From the NCBI RefSeq assembly GCF_000737575.1, contig NZ_CP006270.1, forward strand, positions 189,163 through 253,162: 64,000 nt of DNA, written 5' to 3'. Every line of letters begins with the position of its first letter. The stretch's first letter is position 1. Both the position numbers and the translations under genes were made by a program. Positions 6,999-16,664 of the stretch are shown in pieces. Origin of the DNA: Synechococcus sp. KORDI-49 (GTDB taxonomy: Bacteria; Cyanobacteriota; Cyanobacteriia; PCC-6307; Cyanobiaceae). The notes below the pieces were generated by a model that was not told the origin of the DNA, searched no databases, and worked only from the letters and a program-made list of their open reading frames with translations.

Positions 6999-8399
6999 TT
7001 GACCAGAAAAATCATTGTTGGCAGCGAGGAGTGGTGTTCCCTGCCTGGGCTTGGTCTGCCGGCGATCAAGGCACGGGTTGACTCCGGTGCCGCAACTTCA
7101 TCTCTGCATGCCTTCAACATCGTGCCGTTTCAGCGCGATGAAGCCCGTTGGATCAGTTTTGAAGTGCATCCGCTCCAGAACGACCGTTCCGTGGTGATCC
7201 GCCACGAGGCTCCGGTGCTCGAACAGCGTGGCGTGCGGAACACCAGTGGCATCAGCGAAACCCGCTATGTGATCCGAGAGCAGCTGGTGCTCGGTAAGGA
7301 GAGCTGGCCGATTGAGCTGACCCTCACCAATCGCGATGCGATGGGTTACCGAATGCTGCTCGGCCGTGAAGCCATGGTGGGGCGCGTGCTGGTGGATCCC
7401 GAGGGCAGCCACCAGCTCGGCGATGTTCCCCCGGACCAGCTCGAGGCGATGTACTCCCCTCTGCGCACGGAACGCCATGGGCTTCGCATTGCTCTGCTGG
7501 CCTCGGATCCGGAGCTGTACAGCAACCGCCGTCTTCTGGAGGCTGGCGAGGAACGGGGCCACCGCATGGAGTTCCTCAATGTCAAGCAGTGCTACATGCG
7601 GTTGGATCCTCAGAATCCCGAGATGCACTACCGGGGAGGCAATGTGTTGGAGCGCATCGATGCGGTGATTCCGCGGATTCGCCCCAGCGTCACCTTTTAC
7701 GGCTGTGCGATCACACGCCAGTTCGAGGCGATGGGCATTCGCGTGCTCAATGCCGCAGAACCGATCAAGCGCTCACGCGACAAGCTTCTGGCGTCCCAGT
7801 TGTTTGTGCGGCACGGCCTGAACATGCCGGTCACAGGCTTTGCCAGCTCTCCACTCGACACAAAGGACCTGATCAAGATGGTGGGTGGTGCCCCGTTGAT
7901 CCTCAAGCTGCTGGAGGGGGCCCAGGGCCGTGGTGTTGTGTTGGCGGAGACCCAGAAAGCGGCGGAGAGTGTGATCAACGCCATGAAAAGCCTGAACGCC
8001 AACCTTCTGGTGCAGGAATTCATCAAGGAAGCCGGTGGTAAGGATCTGCGTTGTTTCGTGATCGGCGGAAAAGTTGTTTCGGCGATTGAACGGACGGCGG
8101 CGGTCGGAGATTTTCGCTCCAACATTCATCAAGGTGGGTCGGCACAGGCCGTGCGCATCCGCCCGGAAGAACGCAAATTGGCTGTGTCGGCGACCCGTGC
8201 ACTCGGGTTGGATGTAGCCGGAGTTGACATCATTCGCTCGGAGCGGGGCCCTCTGCTGCTGGAGGTGAATTCAAGTCCTGGTCTGGAGGGCATTGAAACA
8301 GCCACAGGCAAGGATCTGGCCGGCTTGATGATTCAGGAAATCGAGCGAAAACTCGGCTGGATCCGTACACGTCTGTCGGAACCTCGGGTCGCTTGCTGA
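6999..8399 (+). CDS. RimB-RimK fusion: retropepsin-like domain plus ATP-grasp ligase
   Basis: 466 aa, TTG start at 6999. Residues ~1-145 match the RimB/ATP-dependent zinc protease family (PF05618), with [15 protein letters not shown], the retropepsin-like catalytic DSGA motif, and GRVLVDP. Residues ~160-455 are a RimK-type ATP-grasp domain with [22 protein letters not shown] and [15 protein letters not shown] (metal-binding Glu/Asn). RimK ligases add glutamate to protein C-termini or make related amide bonds, and RimB is its usual proteolytic partner. Fusion of the two in one chain implies coupled ligation and trimming of the same substrate. Confidence 0.88.
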
Positions 8400-12433: not shown

Positions 12434-12548
12434 GTTTCGTGTTCATCTCTCTTCACGATGCCCGCAAGCTCGTGTGAACAGTTGCAATCAACAGCCCTTC
12501 TTTCGAATTGAAGCCTGAAAACCCCTTGGCATGAAGCCGGAAGTGCAC

Positions 12549-12577
12549 AAAAAAACCGAGCCGATGTCGGCCCGGTT
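12549..12577 (-). terminator. intrinsic terminator of the DUF4278 gene
   Basis: On the minus strand AACCGGGCCGA and TCGGCTCGGTT pair over 11 bp (one G-U) around a 2-nt loop and run directly into T7. It lies 23 bp after the DUF4278 stop codon. Confidence 0.85.
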
Positions 12578-12599
12578 TGCAAGGTTTGGGTCTGGGCAA

Positions 12600-12803
12600 T
12601 CAGCACCAGTTGGCAGCCATCTCCTCGTAGGACACGCCACGGACGTAGGTGTTGCCGCGGTAGGTGAGAGGGGTGGCTGGGTTGCCACCGGCAGCTCTGT
12701 TGCTCAGATAGCTGCTGCGGCGATAGGTGAGTTGAACCGGTGCGGAGGCATCAGCAGAAACCTGCTGGTTGTACTCGGCACCGCGATAAAGCAGAGCGGA
12801 CAT
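12600..12803 (-). CDS. DUF4278 family protein (copy 1)
   Basis: 67 aa with the repeated L-x-YRG-x-x-Y motif typical of DUF4278: ALLYRGAEY, LTYRRSSY and LTYRGNTY, then VRGVSYE. DUF4278 proteins are short cyanobacterial proteins of unknown function. A second member is encoded at 24297. Both have a GTA-N8-TAC sequence 85-103 bp upstream. A strong terminator follows. Confidence 0.85.
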   Translation of the reverse strand: MSALLYRGAEYNQQVSADASAPVQLTYRRSSYLSNRAAGGNPATPLTYRGNTYVRGVSYEEMAANWC

Positions 12804-12887
12804 GATGAGTTCCTCGAAGCAAGCTCAGGTCCCCGTTCCATGGCCTGAGTCGAACTGCGCTTCGCAGCGATTGCGAAGTGAACGTGT

Positions 12888-12901
12888 GTAGCTGTTGCTA
12901 C
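12888..12901. promoter_or_regulatory. GTA-N8-TAC site upstream of DUF4278 gene 1
   Basis: GTAGCTGTTGCTAC matches the NtcA consensus GTA-N8-TAC and has perfect 5-bp arms (GTAGC/GCTAC). It is 85 bp before the DUF4278 ATG. The reverse complement of exactly the same 14 bases is upstream of the other DUF4278 gene. A TATAAA lies beside it at 12909-12914 on the minus strand. Confidence 0.5.
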
Positions 12902-12961
12902 GACCCTTTTATAAGACTTTGGGCGGTTGGATAGTCGTTCAGGTTGATACCGAATTCTCAA

Positions 12962-13395
12962 GATCGTTCCCAAGGGGAAGGCCGCCCCTCCCGGATGGGA
13001 AGGACGGCCTATCTCGCTCGTTTGTGCATAGCAATCGACCTAATCAGTGATGCTTCAAGGGTGTTGGAACCTCAAGCAAATGGACTGAAGAAACGGTCGA
13101 AGCGTCTGGCTTGATGGCGCCTGGGGCCAGGGAGTCCAGAGGTTGGGCCGGCATCCTTCAGGGCACCTTGGTCTTTGGCGGTGCAGAGGATGGTCGACTG
13201 GTCGGACGCACAGCTGTGTCGTCGCAGACGAAAGGCCCACGCATGGGTGGAAACTGTTGGAGCAGGGGCCGGAAAGTCAGGCTGCTTCTGGGATGTGCTC
13301 AGGTGGAGTGTCGGCCGTCATGGCTCCTCCGATCTCGATGAACACAGTGTTGGTGTTCCAGGCGACAAAGACAATCGGTGTTAAGGCGCATTGCC
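12962..13395. repeat. 434-bp direct repeat, left copy
   Basis: Identical base for base to 15685-16118, with a constant offset of 2723. Flanking bases differ on both sides of both copies, so these are the true ends. The unit contains a 14-bp GC-rich hairpin (12979-13010). On the minus strand it also holds a short frame beginning near NTNTVFIEIGGAMTADTPPE, broken by stops and frame changes, which looks like a decayed gene tail. The repeat abuts the FRP end of the OCP operon. Confidence 0.95.
12979..13010. other. long GC-rich hairpin inside left repeat
   Basis: The 14-bp arms 12979-12992 and 12997-13010 pair with a few wobble pairs around a 4-nt loop. Terminator-like in shape for minus-strand transcription, but followed by TTCCCCTT rather than a T-run. 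An identical copy is at 15702-15733. Confidence 0.6.
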
Positions 13396-13438
13396 TCGAG
13401 GCAGCGGAACGCCGAAGTTGGAGACGGCGTGCCTCGAG
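13393..13438 (-). other. hairpin downstream of FRP at the repeat junction
   Basis: On the minus strand GAGGCA-CGCCG can pair with CGGCG and TGCCTC across an internal loop; two copies of GCCTCGAG bracket it. It lies between the FRP stop (13456) and the left repeat and spans the exact repeat boundary, so it is either the 3' structure of the operon or part of the recombination junction. Confidence 0.4.
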
Positions 13439-13455
13439 CGACTGGGATCAGCCGC

Positions 13456-13776
13456 TCAGAACATCGACATCGCCTTGATTTTGCTCACCTTCTTCTGATC
13501 CAGTCCCTGGAGATCATCCATGGCGATCAGCTTCTGTTTGATCATGTCGGCCAGTACGAACAGCACGTTGCCTTCTTCAAATTCAGAGCGTCCCTCGTAT
13601 TGATAACGTTCAGTACTGAGATAGTCGTGTAGTTTCCAAACAGATTCTGCTGAATCAAGCTGGCTTGATTGCTCCTGCAATGTGTTGATCAAGGCAGTGA
13701 TCGAACGATGCTTGCCGAGCTCAAAGGCATGTCGGGCAACGGTTTGTTCTTCGAGTGTCCAGTCTGTTGCCGACAT
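13456..13776 (-). CDS. frp: fluorescence recovery protein
   Basis: 106 aa. Matches FRP through the central VWKLHDYLSTERYQYEGR segment, the following helix ending LADMIKQKLI, and the C-terminal KVSKIKAM. FRP binds the active red form of OCP, detaches it from the phycobilisome and speeds its return to the orange form, ending photoprotective quenching. It is the last gene of ocp-crtW-frp, 44 bp after the ketolase. Its presence indicates an OCP1-type carotenoid protein. Confidence 0.88.
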   Translation of the reverse strand: MSATDWTLEEQTVARHAFELGKHRSITALINTLQEQSSQLDSAESVWKLHDYLSTERYQYEGRSEFEEGNVLFVLADMIKQKLIAMDDLQGLDQKKVSKIKAMSMF

Positions 13777-13820
13777 GAAAAAGATTGTGGTGAGGGGGAA
13801 TCAGATGTGATCAGGGTCGA

Positions 13821-14555
13821 TCAAGAGCGATGATGATCCCGAAGCAGTGGCAGCTGAAACCAGGGTGTGGATGGCGAATCATGATGTTCACGATGATAGC
13901 CAAAGTGGTAACAGGCTGCGAAAGACAAGACAGGATTGAGCGCCAGGCTGCGAGAGGTGATGCCCGGTTGTGACGTCACTCCTCTCCGGTGTGGCATCCA
14001 GGTTCCCACCAGAAACAGCTGACATGAACTGATGATCAGTGGCAGAACGCAGAACAGCAGTAATGGCAGTGCATGATCGGTCTGATGGTGGCGCGTCAGG
14101 TTGAAGAGAACGAACCAGAAGCCACCCAGGTTCAGCAATTGTTTCCAGCTCAGATAGTTGCCCATGAAGTGGACATACCAACTGAAGATGCCGTCATTGG
14201 TGGAGCGTTGATAGTCAGGATCCCGATCGGATTCAGGTGCCTGATGATGACGTCGGTGGTTCCGGTAGCAGAGCCTGTAGGACAGGCCCGCGTACAGAAA
14301 CAGGCAGACCCTGCCGATCAGGCGGTTCAGCCCAGGCTGTTTTGGAACGAGGCTGTTGTGCATGGCGTCGTGGGCCACGATGAACAGTCCCGTGTGCAGA
14401 AACGCCCTGACCAGGACAACCGCGCCGAGCAGCAGCGGTGGGATCTGATCCAGCGACAGGTTCAGGCTGAAGGCCAGCGTCAGCAGCCAGGCTGATCCGA
14501 TCAGACCAGCCAGGGCGAGACCCTGCTGGCCCTGACGGTTCAACTCACTTGCCAC
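13821..14555 (-). CDS. crtW: beta-carotene ketolase (CrtW type)
   Basis: 244 aa from the GTG at 14555, which overlaps the OCP stop codon; a TTG at 14543 is an alternative. It is a di-iron membrane enzyme: the three histidine motifs HDAMH, HRRHH and HREHH are present between four hydrophobic segments. It oxidises beta-carotene to echinenone/canthaxanthin, the keto-carotenoids OCP needs as chromophore. The overlap with ocp implies coupled expression, so chromophore and apoprotein are made together. Confidence 0.88.
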   Translation of the reverse strand: MASELNRQGQQGLALAGLIGSAWLLTLAFSLNLSLDQIPPLLLGAVVLVRAFLHTGLFIVAHDAMHNSLVPKQPGLNRLIGRVCLFLYAGLSYRLCYRNHRRHHQAPESDRDPDYQRSTNDGIFSWYVHFMGNYLSWKQLLNLGGFWFVLFNLTRHHQTDHALPLLLFCVLPLIISSCQLFLVGTWMPHRRGVTSQPGITSRSLALNPVLSFAACYHFGYHREHHDSPSTPWFQLPLLRDHHRS

Positions 14556-15501
14556 CCAGTTTGAGCAATTCAGCCGGGGAGGCGAGCAGGTCGATGGCCA
14601 CGAAATAGATCTTGTCGTTTTCATCCAGCAGGAAGCGCCAGGCCACGTTCATGCCCACCTCGCGTCCGAACCAGGGCGTCTGCACCTTGCCGGTGACCTT
14701 GATCTGGTTGAAGCCGCCCTCGGTCGGCTCGCCGTATCCGCCCTGAGGCATCAGCTTCAGGTTCTGGCAATCCCGCTTGAAGAACTTGAGGATGGCGTCG
14801 CGTCCGACGATCGGACGCTGGAACGGGGGCTGCAGCGCGCCGTCATCCAGGAAGAGATTGATCAGCTGATCGAAGTCGTTGGCGTTGAGCAGCTGCATGT
14901 AACTCAGGATGGTCTGATTCAGCACCCCGGGAATGAAGATCTCCTCGCGCTGATCCTCCGGGGTGGGAGCCACGATCGGCTCGGTCACCACATCGCTGTC
15001 GTTCACGTCAGGGTCGTAGCCCATGTCGACCACGAAGTTGCGAAGCAACGTGATCTGCTGGCCCTGCTCCACTTTCTTGACGGCCTCCAGCACGGAATTG
15101 GCGTTGGCAGACAGCCTGTATCCCTGAGGGATCGGCGCCACCTTGCCCTGACGCATGAATTCGCCCAGTTCGTACCAGAAGCAGAGCTTCACGTTCACCG
15201 ACCAGTAGGCGTAGCGAGCCGAAATCGGGCTGTTGATCTTGGCGGCCAGGTCACACATCACCTTGGTCTGCTCGTCGAAGCTCATCGCCAGGATCTCGTC
15301 CAGCGTCGGTCGAGCCAGAGCCATGCGGGCTGCGCCGGGGGCCGCCACCGTGATGGTTTGTCCCATCTCCAGATAGGCAAACCAGATCAGAGCCAGCTGG
15401 TCTTCCGCGCTCAGCAGCTTGAAGCGCGCCGTGATCGCCGGAACGGCATCCGCGGTCAACGTGTCCGGGAAGATCTGGCGAGCTTTGTCGAGCGTGAACA
15501 T
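14545..15501 (-). CDS. ocp: orange carotenoid protein
   Basis: 318 aa, full length. N-terminal helical carotenoid domain (DQLALIWFAYLEMGQTITVA, YWSVNVKLCFWYELGE, ITLLRNFVVDMG), a linker, and an NTF2-like C-terminal domain (NANDFDQLINLFLDDGALQP, KVTGKVQTPWFG, FVAIDLLASP). The salt-bridge Arg in LLRN, the domain-interface Glu region and the chromophore-binding Tyr and Trp motifs are all in place. OCP senses blue-green light and quenches phycobilisome energy. It is the first gene of the operon; the 183 bp upstream (to the right repeat) must hold the promoter, where TTATACC near 15593 is a possible -10. Confidence 0.95.
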   Translation of the reverse strand: MFTLDKARQIFPDTLTADAVPAITARFKLLSAEDQLALIWFAYLEMGQTITVAAPGAARMALARPTLDEILAMSFDEQTKVMCDLAAKINSPISARYAYWSVNVKLCFWYELGEFMRQGKVAPIPQGYRLSANANSVLEAVKKVEQGQQITLLRNFVVDMGYDPDVNDSDVVTEPIVAPTPEDQREEIFIPGVLNQTILSYMQLLNANDFDQLINLFLDDGALQPPFQRPIVGRDAILKFFKRDCQNLKLMPQGGYGEPTEGGFNQIKVTGKVQTPWFGREVGMNVAWRFLLDENDKIYFVAIDLLASPAELLKLGGK

Positions 15502-15684
15502 CCGCGGAGGGCACAGAGCGGCTGAACCGTAACACTATGTGTCGGGTTTGCGCGTACCTGGCGTGTCTTTGCTCTGTTGCGGCTGTGATCTGGTATAAGC
15601 CTGTCCGTTTTATCCGACGGGTCGCTCCCGGTCTGCACTCGTCAGGCTGCGAAACGTCCGCTCCGCCTGGTGCTCTGCGGTTCT

Positions 15685-16118
15685 GATCGTTCCCAAGGGG
15701 AAGGCCGCCCCTCCCGGATGGGAAGGACGGCCTATCTCGCTCGTTTGTGCATAGCAATCGACCTAATCAGTGATGCTTCAAGGGTGTTGGAACCTCAAGC
15801 AAATGGACTGAAGAAACGGTCGAAGCGTCTGGCTTGATGGCGCCTGGGGCCAGGGAGTCCAGAGGTTGGGCCGGCATCCTTCAGGGCACCTTGGTCTTTG
15901 GCGGTGCAGAGGATGGTCGACTGGTCGGACGCACAGCTGTGTCGTCGCAGACGAAAGGCCCACGCATGGGTGGAAACTGTTGGAGCAGGGGCCGGAAAGT
16001 CAGGCTGCTTCTGGGATGTGCTCAGGTGGAGTGTCGGCCGTCATGGCTCCTCCGATCTCGATGAACACAGTGTTGGTGTTCCAGGCGACAAAGACAATCG
16101 GTGTTAAGGCGCATTGCC
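15685..16118. repeat. 434-bp direct repeat, right copy
   Basis: Perfect copy of 12962-13395 in the same orientation. It begins 184 bp upstream of the ocp start codon and ends 110 bp before the RNA-binding protein gene. The two copies therefore bracket the complete three-gene cassette plus promoter and nothing else. It contains the same hairpin (15702-15733) and the same broken minus-strand frame. Confidence 0.95.
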
Positions 16119-16227
16119 GTGATGGGTGCCGCCGATCGAGTCTTGGGGTGGCGTGCCTGCCTCCGTGGTCACGGTCGGACACCACCATGTGAGAAGGTGG
16201 TACGGACCGCCTTTCTGGCCGAATTTT

Positions 16228-16473
16228 TTGACGATCTTCATTGGAAATCTCTCCTGGGACGCTGAGAGAGAGGACCTCATCCATCTGTTCACCCAGTACG
16301 GCGAAGTGAGCAAGTGCTCCATGCCCCTGGACCGTGAGACCGGCCGCAAGCGTGGCTTCGCCTTCGTCGACCTGGCGAATGAGGCGGATGAAACCTCCGC
16401 GATCGACGATCTGCAGAACGTTGAATGGATGGGACGCGGCATCACCGTGCGCAAGGCTGAGCCGAAGCGCTGA
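16228..16473 (+). CDS. single-RRM RNA-binding protein
   Basis: 81 aa from the TTG at 16228. One RNA recognition motif: RNP2 is IFIGNLSW and RNP1 is RKRGFAFVDL. Cyanobacterial Rbp proteins of this size bind single-stranded RNA; several are cold-induced or guide photosystem mRNAs to thylakoids. The reading frame extends upstream but without conserved sequence. A perfect terminator follows the stop by 26 bp. Confidence 0.85.
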   Translation: MTIFIGNLSWDAEREDLIHLFTQYGEVSKCSMPLDRETGRKRGFAFVDLANEADETSAIDDLQNVEWMGRGITVRKAEPKR

Positions 16474-16499
16474 CGCCGTTCGTTCGAACGGGTTCATGC

Positions 16500-16527
16500 A
16501 ACATCCCCCGATCGGGGGATGTTTTTT
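16500..16527 (+). terminator. intrinsic terminator of the RRM gene
   Basis: Perfect 12-bp inverted repeat AACATCCCCCGA / TCGGGGGATGTT followed by T6 (16522-16527). The G/C arms superficially resemble the regulatory dyads, but the position and T-run identify it as a terminator. Confidence 0.9.
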
Positions 16528-16664
16528 CGTAGGCATCCGCGGAAGCTGATCCCATCCGGGGGAGTTCCCCTCTCCGCAAACAAGCAGGTCGGCATGACCC
16601 CAGCACACGTCTGCTGTTGCCTGAGCGCACAGGCCTGCCGATGAAATGTGCATACTCTGGAGTC

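What the first reader, a model, noticed from the sequence alone, without database searches (positions are those of the whole stretch)
12962..16118. OCP-ketolase-FRP cassette bracketed by perfect 434-bp direct repeats
12962-13395 equals 15685-16118 exactly, and the 2289 bp between contain only ocp, crtW, frp and their promoter. Recombination between the repeats would excise the whole photoprotection cassette cleanly, and integration of a circle carrying one repeat would recreate this arrangement. OCP occurrence is patchy among picocyanobacteria, which such a mechanism could explain.
Basis: partly seen in the sequence, partly recalled or inferred. Interest (0 to 1): 0.7.

Follow-up and report, generated by a model that had tools for sequence, protein, structure and literature searches.

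The report
Abundant RNA gene pair flanks OCP cassette
A marine cyanobacterium's light-protection gene cassette sits between two identical copies of a gene that looks like the abundant RNA Yfr103, and two relatives that lack the cassette carry just one copy at that spot, as expected if the cassette dropped out by recombination between the copies.

Summary
In detail: 12962-13395 and 15685-16118 are identical (434/434, no extension), and the 2289 bp between hold frp, crtW and ocp. The repeats are not ends of a mobile element. They match the multicopy RNA gene Yfr103 (named by properties; no published sequence was readable): structured, minus strand, terminator at the far end, four places in this genome, matches in 32 of 34 genus genomes, no Rfam hit.
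Two relatives without OCP (G005, G006) carry one copy whose left flank is that of copy 1 and whose right flank is that of copy 2: the predicted empty site. A second species (G024) has the cassette bracketed by its own 98.8%-identical pair. Against a dedicated mechanism: another loss (G019) is a deletion away from the repeats; the scar is seen in 2 of 13 OCP-lacking genomes whose rrm locus I saw; cassette genes have background synonymous divergence; no recombinase among 18 neighbouring proteins; Yfr103 loci show about as much one-sided synteny as ordinary genes. Best reading: ordinary homologous recombination and gene conversion between two neighbouring Yfr103 genes, which removed the cassette once. 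Loss rather than gain is inferred. Exact identity could still be an assembly collapse.

The parts
12962..13395 (-). repeat copy 1: Yfr103-like RNA gene (frp side), read on the minus strand
   Evidence: identical to copy 2; homologous to a multicopy family with covarying structure; terminator-like 3' end on this strand
15685..16118 (-). repeat copy 2: Yfr103-like RNA gene (rrm side), oriented towards ocp
13370..13395 (-). copy 1 upstream imperfect palindrome GGCAAT..ATTGTC
   Evidence: conserved in the 43-copy alignment; offset agrees within a few nt with the -58..-29 palindrome reported for Yfr103 (PMC5069720)
16093..16118 (-). copy 2 upstream imperfect palindrome
   Evidence: as for copy 1
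13336..13339 (-). inferred transcription start of copy 1 (not measured)
   Evidence: carried over from the published palindrome-to-start distance; positions
16059..16062 (-). inferred transcription start of copy 2 (not measured)
   Evidence: as for copy 1
12980..13009 (-). copy 1 terminator-like hairpin
   Evidence: position; compensatory changes; at the same place 13 copies of other genera have, by eye, unrelated T-tailed hairpins. The consensus scan did not list it (its tail is poor in T)
15703..15732 (-). copy 2 terminator-like hairpin
   Evidence: as for copy 1
13277..13321 (-). copy 1 14-codon reading frame behind GGAGG (not shown to be translated)
   Evidence: intact frame in 72 of 84 rows, but no third-position excess of variation
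16000..16044 (-). copy 2 14-codon reading frame
   Evidence: as for copy 1
13426..13433 (-). GGCGTGCC (plus-strand letters) beyond the identical stretch of copy 1
   Evidence: a loose form of the motif at this offset in 48 of 80 distinct flanks, against 130 of 4000 shuffles
16150..16157 (-). same motif beyond copy 2, in otherwise diverged sequence
13456..13776 (-). frp (fluorescence recovery protein)
   Evidence: PF18032, E 3.8e-29
13821..14624 (-). crtW-type ketolase
14545..15501 (-). ocp (orange carotenoid protein)
   Evidence: PF09150 E 1.4e-59 and PF02136
12600..12803 (-). DUF4278 protein, left neighbour
   Evidence: PF14105
12824..12887 (-). Glutamine-II riboswitch leading the DUF4278 gene; its stretch aligns in G005/G006
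   Evidence: RF01704, 70 bits; alignment (Rfam was not run on G005/G006)
16219..16473 (+). RRM RNA-binding protein gene, right neighbour (start uncertain)
   Evidence: PF00076

Best explanation
The two repeats are two directly repeated copies of the multicopy RNA gene Yfr103, one downstream of frp and one between ocp and rrm. The pair is kept alike by gene conversion (inferred). Because they lie in the same orientation 2.7 kb apart, an ordinary homologous crossover between them can delete ocp-crtW-frp and leave one copy; the single-copy site of G005 and G006 is best read as such a scar. Shown: repeat identity, family membership, RNA-like conservation, the second bracketed species, the single-copy site with the predicted flanks. 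Inferred: the name Yfr103 (by properties), gene conversion, and that G005/G006 lost the cassette rather than this genome gaining it.
For: Multicopy family: 32 of 34 genus genomes, 45 of 59 genera of the family. RNA on the minus strand: 12 of 40 predicted pairs have changes on both sides that keep the pair (43 copies); 13 copies of other genera end, by eye, in unrelated T-tailed hairpins on that strand. Yfr103 traits: seven paralogs in strain CC9605, imperfect palindrome at -58..-29, conserved structure, homologs named in Synechococcus and Prochlorococcus (PMC5069720, section 8 read); a genome of 2,510,659 bp, recalled as the size of CC9605, has 7 distinct places among its 8 rows listed (10 matches in all), and the palindrome offset agrees. 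Pairs: copies 100% alike here against 84.9% to the nearest other genome; 98.8% in G024 against 92.1-92.7%. Scar: G005/G006 flanks, in the clade that joins this genome on the helicase tree (91/92, below the program's 95/80 mark). Age of the positions: frp-side copy also in G010, G020, G024 and, without cassette, G019; copy next to rrm also in G024, G005, G006 and, as a 69-bp piece at a contig start, G011; a ~50-bp piece like its 3' end remains at that site in G020 (0 of 1000 shuffles) and G019 (0 of 1000; 1 of 200 against the whole element). Cassette dS to G024 0.68, 0.93, 1.69 against 0.88-1.33 for flanking genes and helicase.
Against: No Yfr103 sequence was available to compare, and predicted lengths from the inferred start to the end of the terminator stem are 323-359 nt for the five CC9605-size copies measured (360 here) against 290-328 published; three of those five fit. 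Loss or gain rests on one protein tree of moderate support and near-equal distances (helicase dS 0.98 to G024, 1.05 to G006), and dS near 1 is close to saturation. The remnants in G019/G020 are not found by the profile at E 100 or clearly by an unrestricted local alignment test (6 and 87 of 300 shuffles reach the score for G020 and G019). Only 23 of 73 copies resemble a paralog of their own genome more than any copy elsewhere (1 tie), so homogenisation is not general. The finished assembly may have used one consensus for both copies.
Confidence: 0.75

Rival explanations
1. Gain: the ancestor had one Yfr103 copy next to rrm, and this genome acquired the cassette by homologous recombination of incoming DNA (circle or fragment) carrying the cassette and a Yfr103 copy.
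For: The same flank data fit; just beyond the repeat, copy 1's flank resembles that of G024 while copy 2's resembles that of G005/G006 (by eye).
Against: Cassette synonymous divergence to G024 and G020 is like the background, though near saturation; both Yfr103 positions and the cassette occur together in G024; no circle or donor seen.
Confidence: 0.15
2. Coincidence: Yfr103 copies duplicate next to the cassette without any role in its loss; G005/G006 lost the cassette and one copy by unrelated deletions.
For: G019 lost the cassette by a deletion whose ends are not at the repeats; Yfr103 copies also lie in tandem or near pairs elsewhere (three in tandem in L165); one-flank-only synteny around Yfr103 (58 of 162 pairs with any flank homology) is much like that around rrm (34 of 110) and the epimerase gene (38 of 100).
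Against: It needs more events than one crossover to give the left and right flanks seen in G005 and G006.
Confidence: 0.12
3. Assembly artefact: the second copy, or its perfect identity, comes from collapsed repeat consensus.
For: Perfect identity in a finished genome; reads not available.
Against: G024 holds copies on both sides of the cassette with differences between them; four distinct flanks exist here.
Confidence: 0.07
4. Mobile element: the repeats are the ends of a transposable cassette with its own recombinase.
For: Clean boundaries and patchy OCP distribution (15 of 34 genomes).
Against: Repeats belong to an RNA gene family, one of whose positions is shared by 12 genomes; none of the 18 proteins between 7341 and 19743 given to Pfam hits an integrase or transposase; no match in the phage collection with a G021 copy as query.
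Confidence: 0.03

Closest known systems
Yfr103 ncRNA of marine picocyanobacteria (PMC5069720)
   Same: Multicopy, strongly structured, in Synechococcus and Prochlorococcus, imperfect palindrome upstream of the start (genus names of pattern hits).
   Different: No sequence could be compared; predicted length is about 30 nt above the published range for some copies.
ocp-crtW-frp operon, Syn-eCAG_016 of PMC10119275 (two passages seen)
   Same: Same three genes as one unit with niche-linked occurrence.
   Different: The passages seen say nothing of flanking RNA genes or of a loss route.
Deletion by homologous recombination between direct repeats such as rRNA operons or insertion sequences (recalled, no call)
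   Same: Two like copies in direct order, single-copy scar.
   Different: The repeat is a small RNA gene.
Tycheposons and phage-like integrative elements of Prochlorococcus (recalled, no call)
   Same: Offered to explain patchy gene content in picocyanobacteria.
   Different: No integrase among the proteins tested; tRNA ends were not searched for.

Membership tests
Yfr103 RNA family | several paralogs per genome | tested here: met
   4 places in this genome; 7 places among the listed rows of the CC9605-size genome
Yfr103 RNA family | imperfect palindrome about 29-58 nt upstream of the start | tested here: inconclusive
   palindrome present at the fitting place; start not measured here
Yfr103 RNA family | strongly conserved secondary structure | tested here: met
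   12 of 40 pairs with both-side changes
Yfr103 RNA family | length 290-328 nt | tested here: inconclusive
   predicted 323-325 nt for three and 359 nt for two of the five measured CC9605-size copies; 360 nt here
Yfr103 RNA family | very high expression | not testable with these tools
   no transcriptome here
Yfr103 RNA family | sequence identity to published Yfr103 | not testable with these tools
Any Rfam family | covariance-model match | tested here: not met
   no match to the repeat at E 1 in window 12500-16600 nor to the copies in six loci at E 0.1
Integrative mobile element | recombinase gene nearby | tested here: not met
   no integrase or transposase among the 18 proteins given to Pfam; not every reading frame was tested
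Direct-repeat deletion | single-copy site with the outer flanks of both copies | tested here: met
   G006 by BLAST, G005 and G006 by alignment
Direct-repeat deletion | excised junction or recombination in culture | not testable with these tools
   no reads

The most novel reading that the evidence does not exclude
Copies of one of the most abundant picocyanobacterial RNA genes serve as portable homology at which niche cassettes such as ocp-crtW-frp are lost and regained between strains, and the RNA transcribed towards ocp also influences its expression.
Probability: 0.12. Interest if true: 0.75.

Novelty: new member of a known kind. Interest (0 to 1): 0.5.

Why it matters
PMC10119275 links the ocp-crtW-frp operon to Synechococcus populations of mixed high-latitude and upwelling waters (passage seen). 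A concrete loss route with a visible scar makes part of its patchiness testable, and it gives a reason to study copy number and conversion of Yfr103, whose function PMC5069720 calls enigmatic.

Tried and rejected
Mobile element or phage origin: no match in 50,697 phage records with a G021 copy as query, no recombinase among the 18 proteins tested. Five viral contigs matched a short pattern and 103 genome stretches did (titles seen: Synechococcus, Prochlorococcus, Cyanobium, Vulcanococcus, and unrelated taxa that may be chance); I read none of these loci.

Yfr103 loci as general rearrangement hot spots: not supported. Pairs with only one conserved flank are 58 of 162 around Yfr103 (74 copies, those with both flanks of at least 900 bp), against 34 of 110 (rrm), 38 of 100 (epimerase), 55 of 62 (helicase), 174 of 258 (membrane protein) and 26 of 42 (ocp). 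One copy with hybrid flanks (G033) is in a fragmented genome and may be a misassembly.

A clean insertion of the rrm-side copy in G024: first read so, then weakened, because a short remnant-like piece stands at that site in G020 and G019 by a position-limited test, though not clearly by an unrestricted one.

Coding role of the 14-codon frame: no support by codon position (mean entropy 0.49, 0.60, 0.54 at positions 1, 2, 3; 50 distinct frames).

Known Prochlorococcus ncRNAs of PMC1242208 (passages) and PMC2518516 (passages and two sections): sizes and distribution fitted less well than Yfr103. PMC7368042: passages, nothing useful. PMC5069720: section 8 and a passage. PMC10119275: two passages. 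Other papers: search listings only.

Rows dropped: of 102 profile hits (92 from model position 20 or lower to 432 or higher), 84 rows were kept; one of them (L035) is a cut repeat of copy 1, left out but still among the 84. Of 48 rows less than 92% alike, 43 went into the structure alignments (with the window's copy for L065); I left out L017, L035, L054, L080 and L127. The helicase tree holds 25 of 34 genomes, those with a match; G019 and G011 are not in it. One requested region (L164) was only 100 bp by my mistake and gave nothing.
Full report
Observation. The two 434-bp stretches are identical and end abruptly on both sides. Between them lie frp, crtW and ocp, all on the minus strand. The window's genome is a single 2,585,813-bp contig, the size I recall for Synechococcus sp. 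KORDI-49.

What the repeat is. The stretch is not specific to this place. The same genome has a 78% relative at 768667-769097 and a more diverged one near 1154209-1154680. In the genus, 32 of 34 genomes have matches; in the family, 129 of 201 genomes and 45 of 59 genera. Of 102 profile hits in the stretches fetched by then, 92 run from model position 20 or lower to 432 or higher of 434. In the alignment of 43 copies conservation is in blocks, and RNAalifold on the minus strand gives 40 pairs of which 12 show changes on both sides that keep pairing. Single-sequence folding is less telling: the minus strand of the window's copy has z -2.15, the plus strand -0.50. In 13 copies of other genera the element ends, on the same strand, in hairpins with T tails whose letters, by eye, are unrelated to the hairpin here. 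So it is an RNA gene read on the minus strand. No Rfam model hits it. Beyond the identical stretch both copies have GGCGTGCC at nearly the same offset; a loose form of it is there in 48 of 80 distinct flanks against 130 of 4000 shuffles, so the gene's upstream region reaches past the identical part.

Name. PMC5069720, section 8, describes Yfr103: seven paralogs of 290-328 nt in Synechococcus CC9605, together 55.2% of that strain's mdRNA-Seq reads, homologs in many marine Synechococcus including KORDI-49 and in some Prochlorococcus, conserved structure, and an imperfect palindrome at -58 to -29 from the start. The repeat begins with such a palindrome; the conserved ATCGA about 57 nt on would be the start. 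A genome of 2,510,659 bp, which I recall as CC9605, has seven distinct places among its rows listed. Predicted lengths are 323-359 nt for five of its copies, so two exceed the published range. I therefore call it Yfr103 by properties, without a sequence comparison.

Relatives of the cassette locus. OCP was found in 15 of 34 genus genomes, 11 of 19 of the good ones. Stretches around all 15 were fetched (this genome among them). Yfr103 stands on both sides of the cassette in 2 (this genome and G024); on the frp side in G020 and G010; on the ocp side in G026, whose contig ends past frp; 6 to 7 kb away in G030 and G022; and nowhere in the stretch in the other 8 (in G011 the contig ends just past ocp). 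In G024 the frp-side copy is 1.3 kb from frp with a glycosyltransferase-like reading frame between.

The empty site. G005 and G006 have no OCP match at E 1e-60. There one Yfr103 copy lies between a stretch that aligns with the DUF4278 leader and its Glutamine-II riboswitch, and rrm. Its left flank aligns with the left flank of copy 1 here and its right flank with the right flank of copy 2 (G006 by BLAST; both by alignment). A DUF4278 gene is hit weakly in G006 (37%, E 9e-5) and not in G005 at this place. This is the arrangement that a crossover between the two repeats would leave. On a helicase tree of 25 genomes these two join this genome with support 91/92, below the 95/80 mark the program uses.

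Other OCP-lacking genomes. Of the 19 without OCP, rrm was seen in 13 of the fetched stretches. A copy directly upstream of rrm is there in 2 (G005, G006); about 2 kb away in 3 (G019, G032, G015); none near rrm in 8 (G002, G004, G007, G014, G016, G023, G027, G028; the contig of G016 ends 1 kb beyond). In G019 the cassette is missing, but the break points lie at the end of the glycosyltransferase frame and about 100 bp beyond the start of ocp, not at Yfr103, which stands 1.9 kb from rrm. The tree needs 8 changes of OCP presence, at least 5 forced by well-supported branches, and 256 of 500 shuffles need as few. The repeat route is visible in one change.

Age and homogenisation. The copies within this genome are 100% alike while the nearest copy elsewhere is 84.9%; in G024 98.8% against 92.1-92.7%. 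Over all genomes with two or more fetched copies, 23 of 73 copies are closer to a paralog in their own genome than to any copy elsewhere, with 1 tie. I read this as occasional gene conversion or recent duplication. A position-limited test finds a ~50-bp piece like the 3' end of the rrm-side copy at that site in G020 (score 17, 0 of 1000 shuffles) and G019 (14, 0 of 1000; 1 of 200 against the whole element); an unrestricted test gives 6 of 300 for G020 and 87 of 300 for G019, and the profile finds nothing. So an old bracketed state is suggested, not shown. dS between this genome and G024 is 0.68 (ocp), 0.93 (crtW), 1.69 (frp) against 0.88 (GNAT), 0.98 (LuxR), 0.92 (rrm), 1.33 (epimerase), 0.98 (helicase): the cassette has diverged with its neighbours, as far as values near saturation can tell.

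General role. Around Yfr103 copies, one-sided conservation is about as common as around rrm and the epimerase gene and less than around three other controls, so I do not claim that these genes are recombination hot spots in general.

Verdict. The bracketing is real and has probably mattered once, through ordinary recombination between two copies of an abundant RNA gene. It does not explain the patchiness of OCP as a whole. The perfect identity should be confirmed with reads.

Noticed in passing
window 13277-13321 and 16000-16044 (minus strand): Yfr103-like copies carry a 14-codon frame (MTADTPPE..EA.) behind a GGAGG-like stretch, intact in 72 of 84 rows, without a third-position signal of coding.
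   Followed up: partly
L165:2034-3366 (G106): Three Yfr103-like copies stand in tandem with a period of about 450 bp.
   Followed up: no
L095:821-3614 (G007), L166:1999-4783 (G217): Pairs of Yfr103-like copies in direct order about 2.4 kb apart bracket other segments.
   Followed up: partly
window 12824-12887 (minus strand): Glutamine-II riboswitch (70 bits) ahead of a DUF4278 gene.
   Followed up: no
L051, reverse orientation 7106-8311 (G024): A 401-aa glycosyltransferase-like reading frame lies between the frp-side Yfr103 copy and frp; the name is by eye, not by a family search.
   Followed up: no
G033:C39:14493-15447: ocp matches in two pieces in different frames in a fragmented genome.
   Followed up: no
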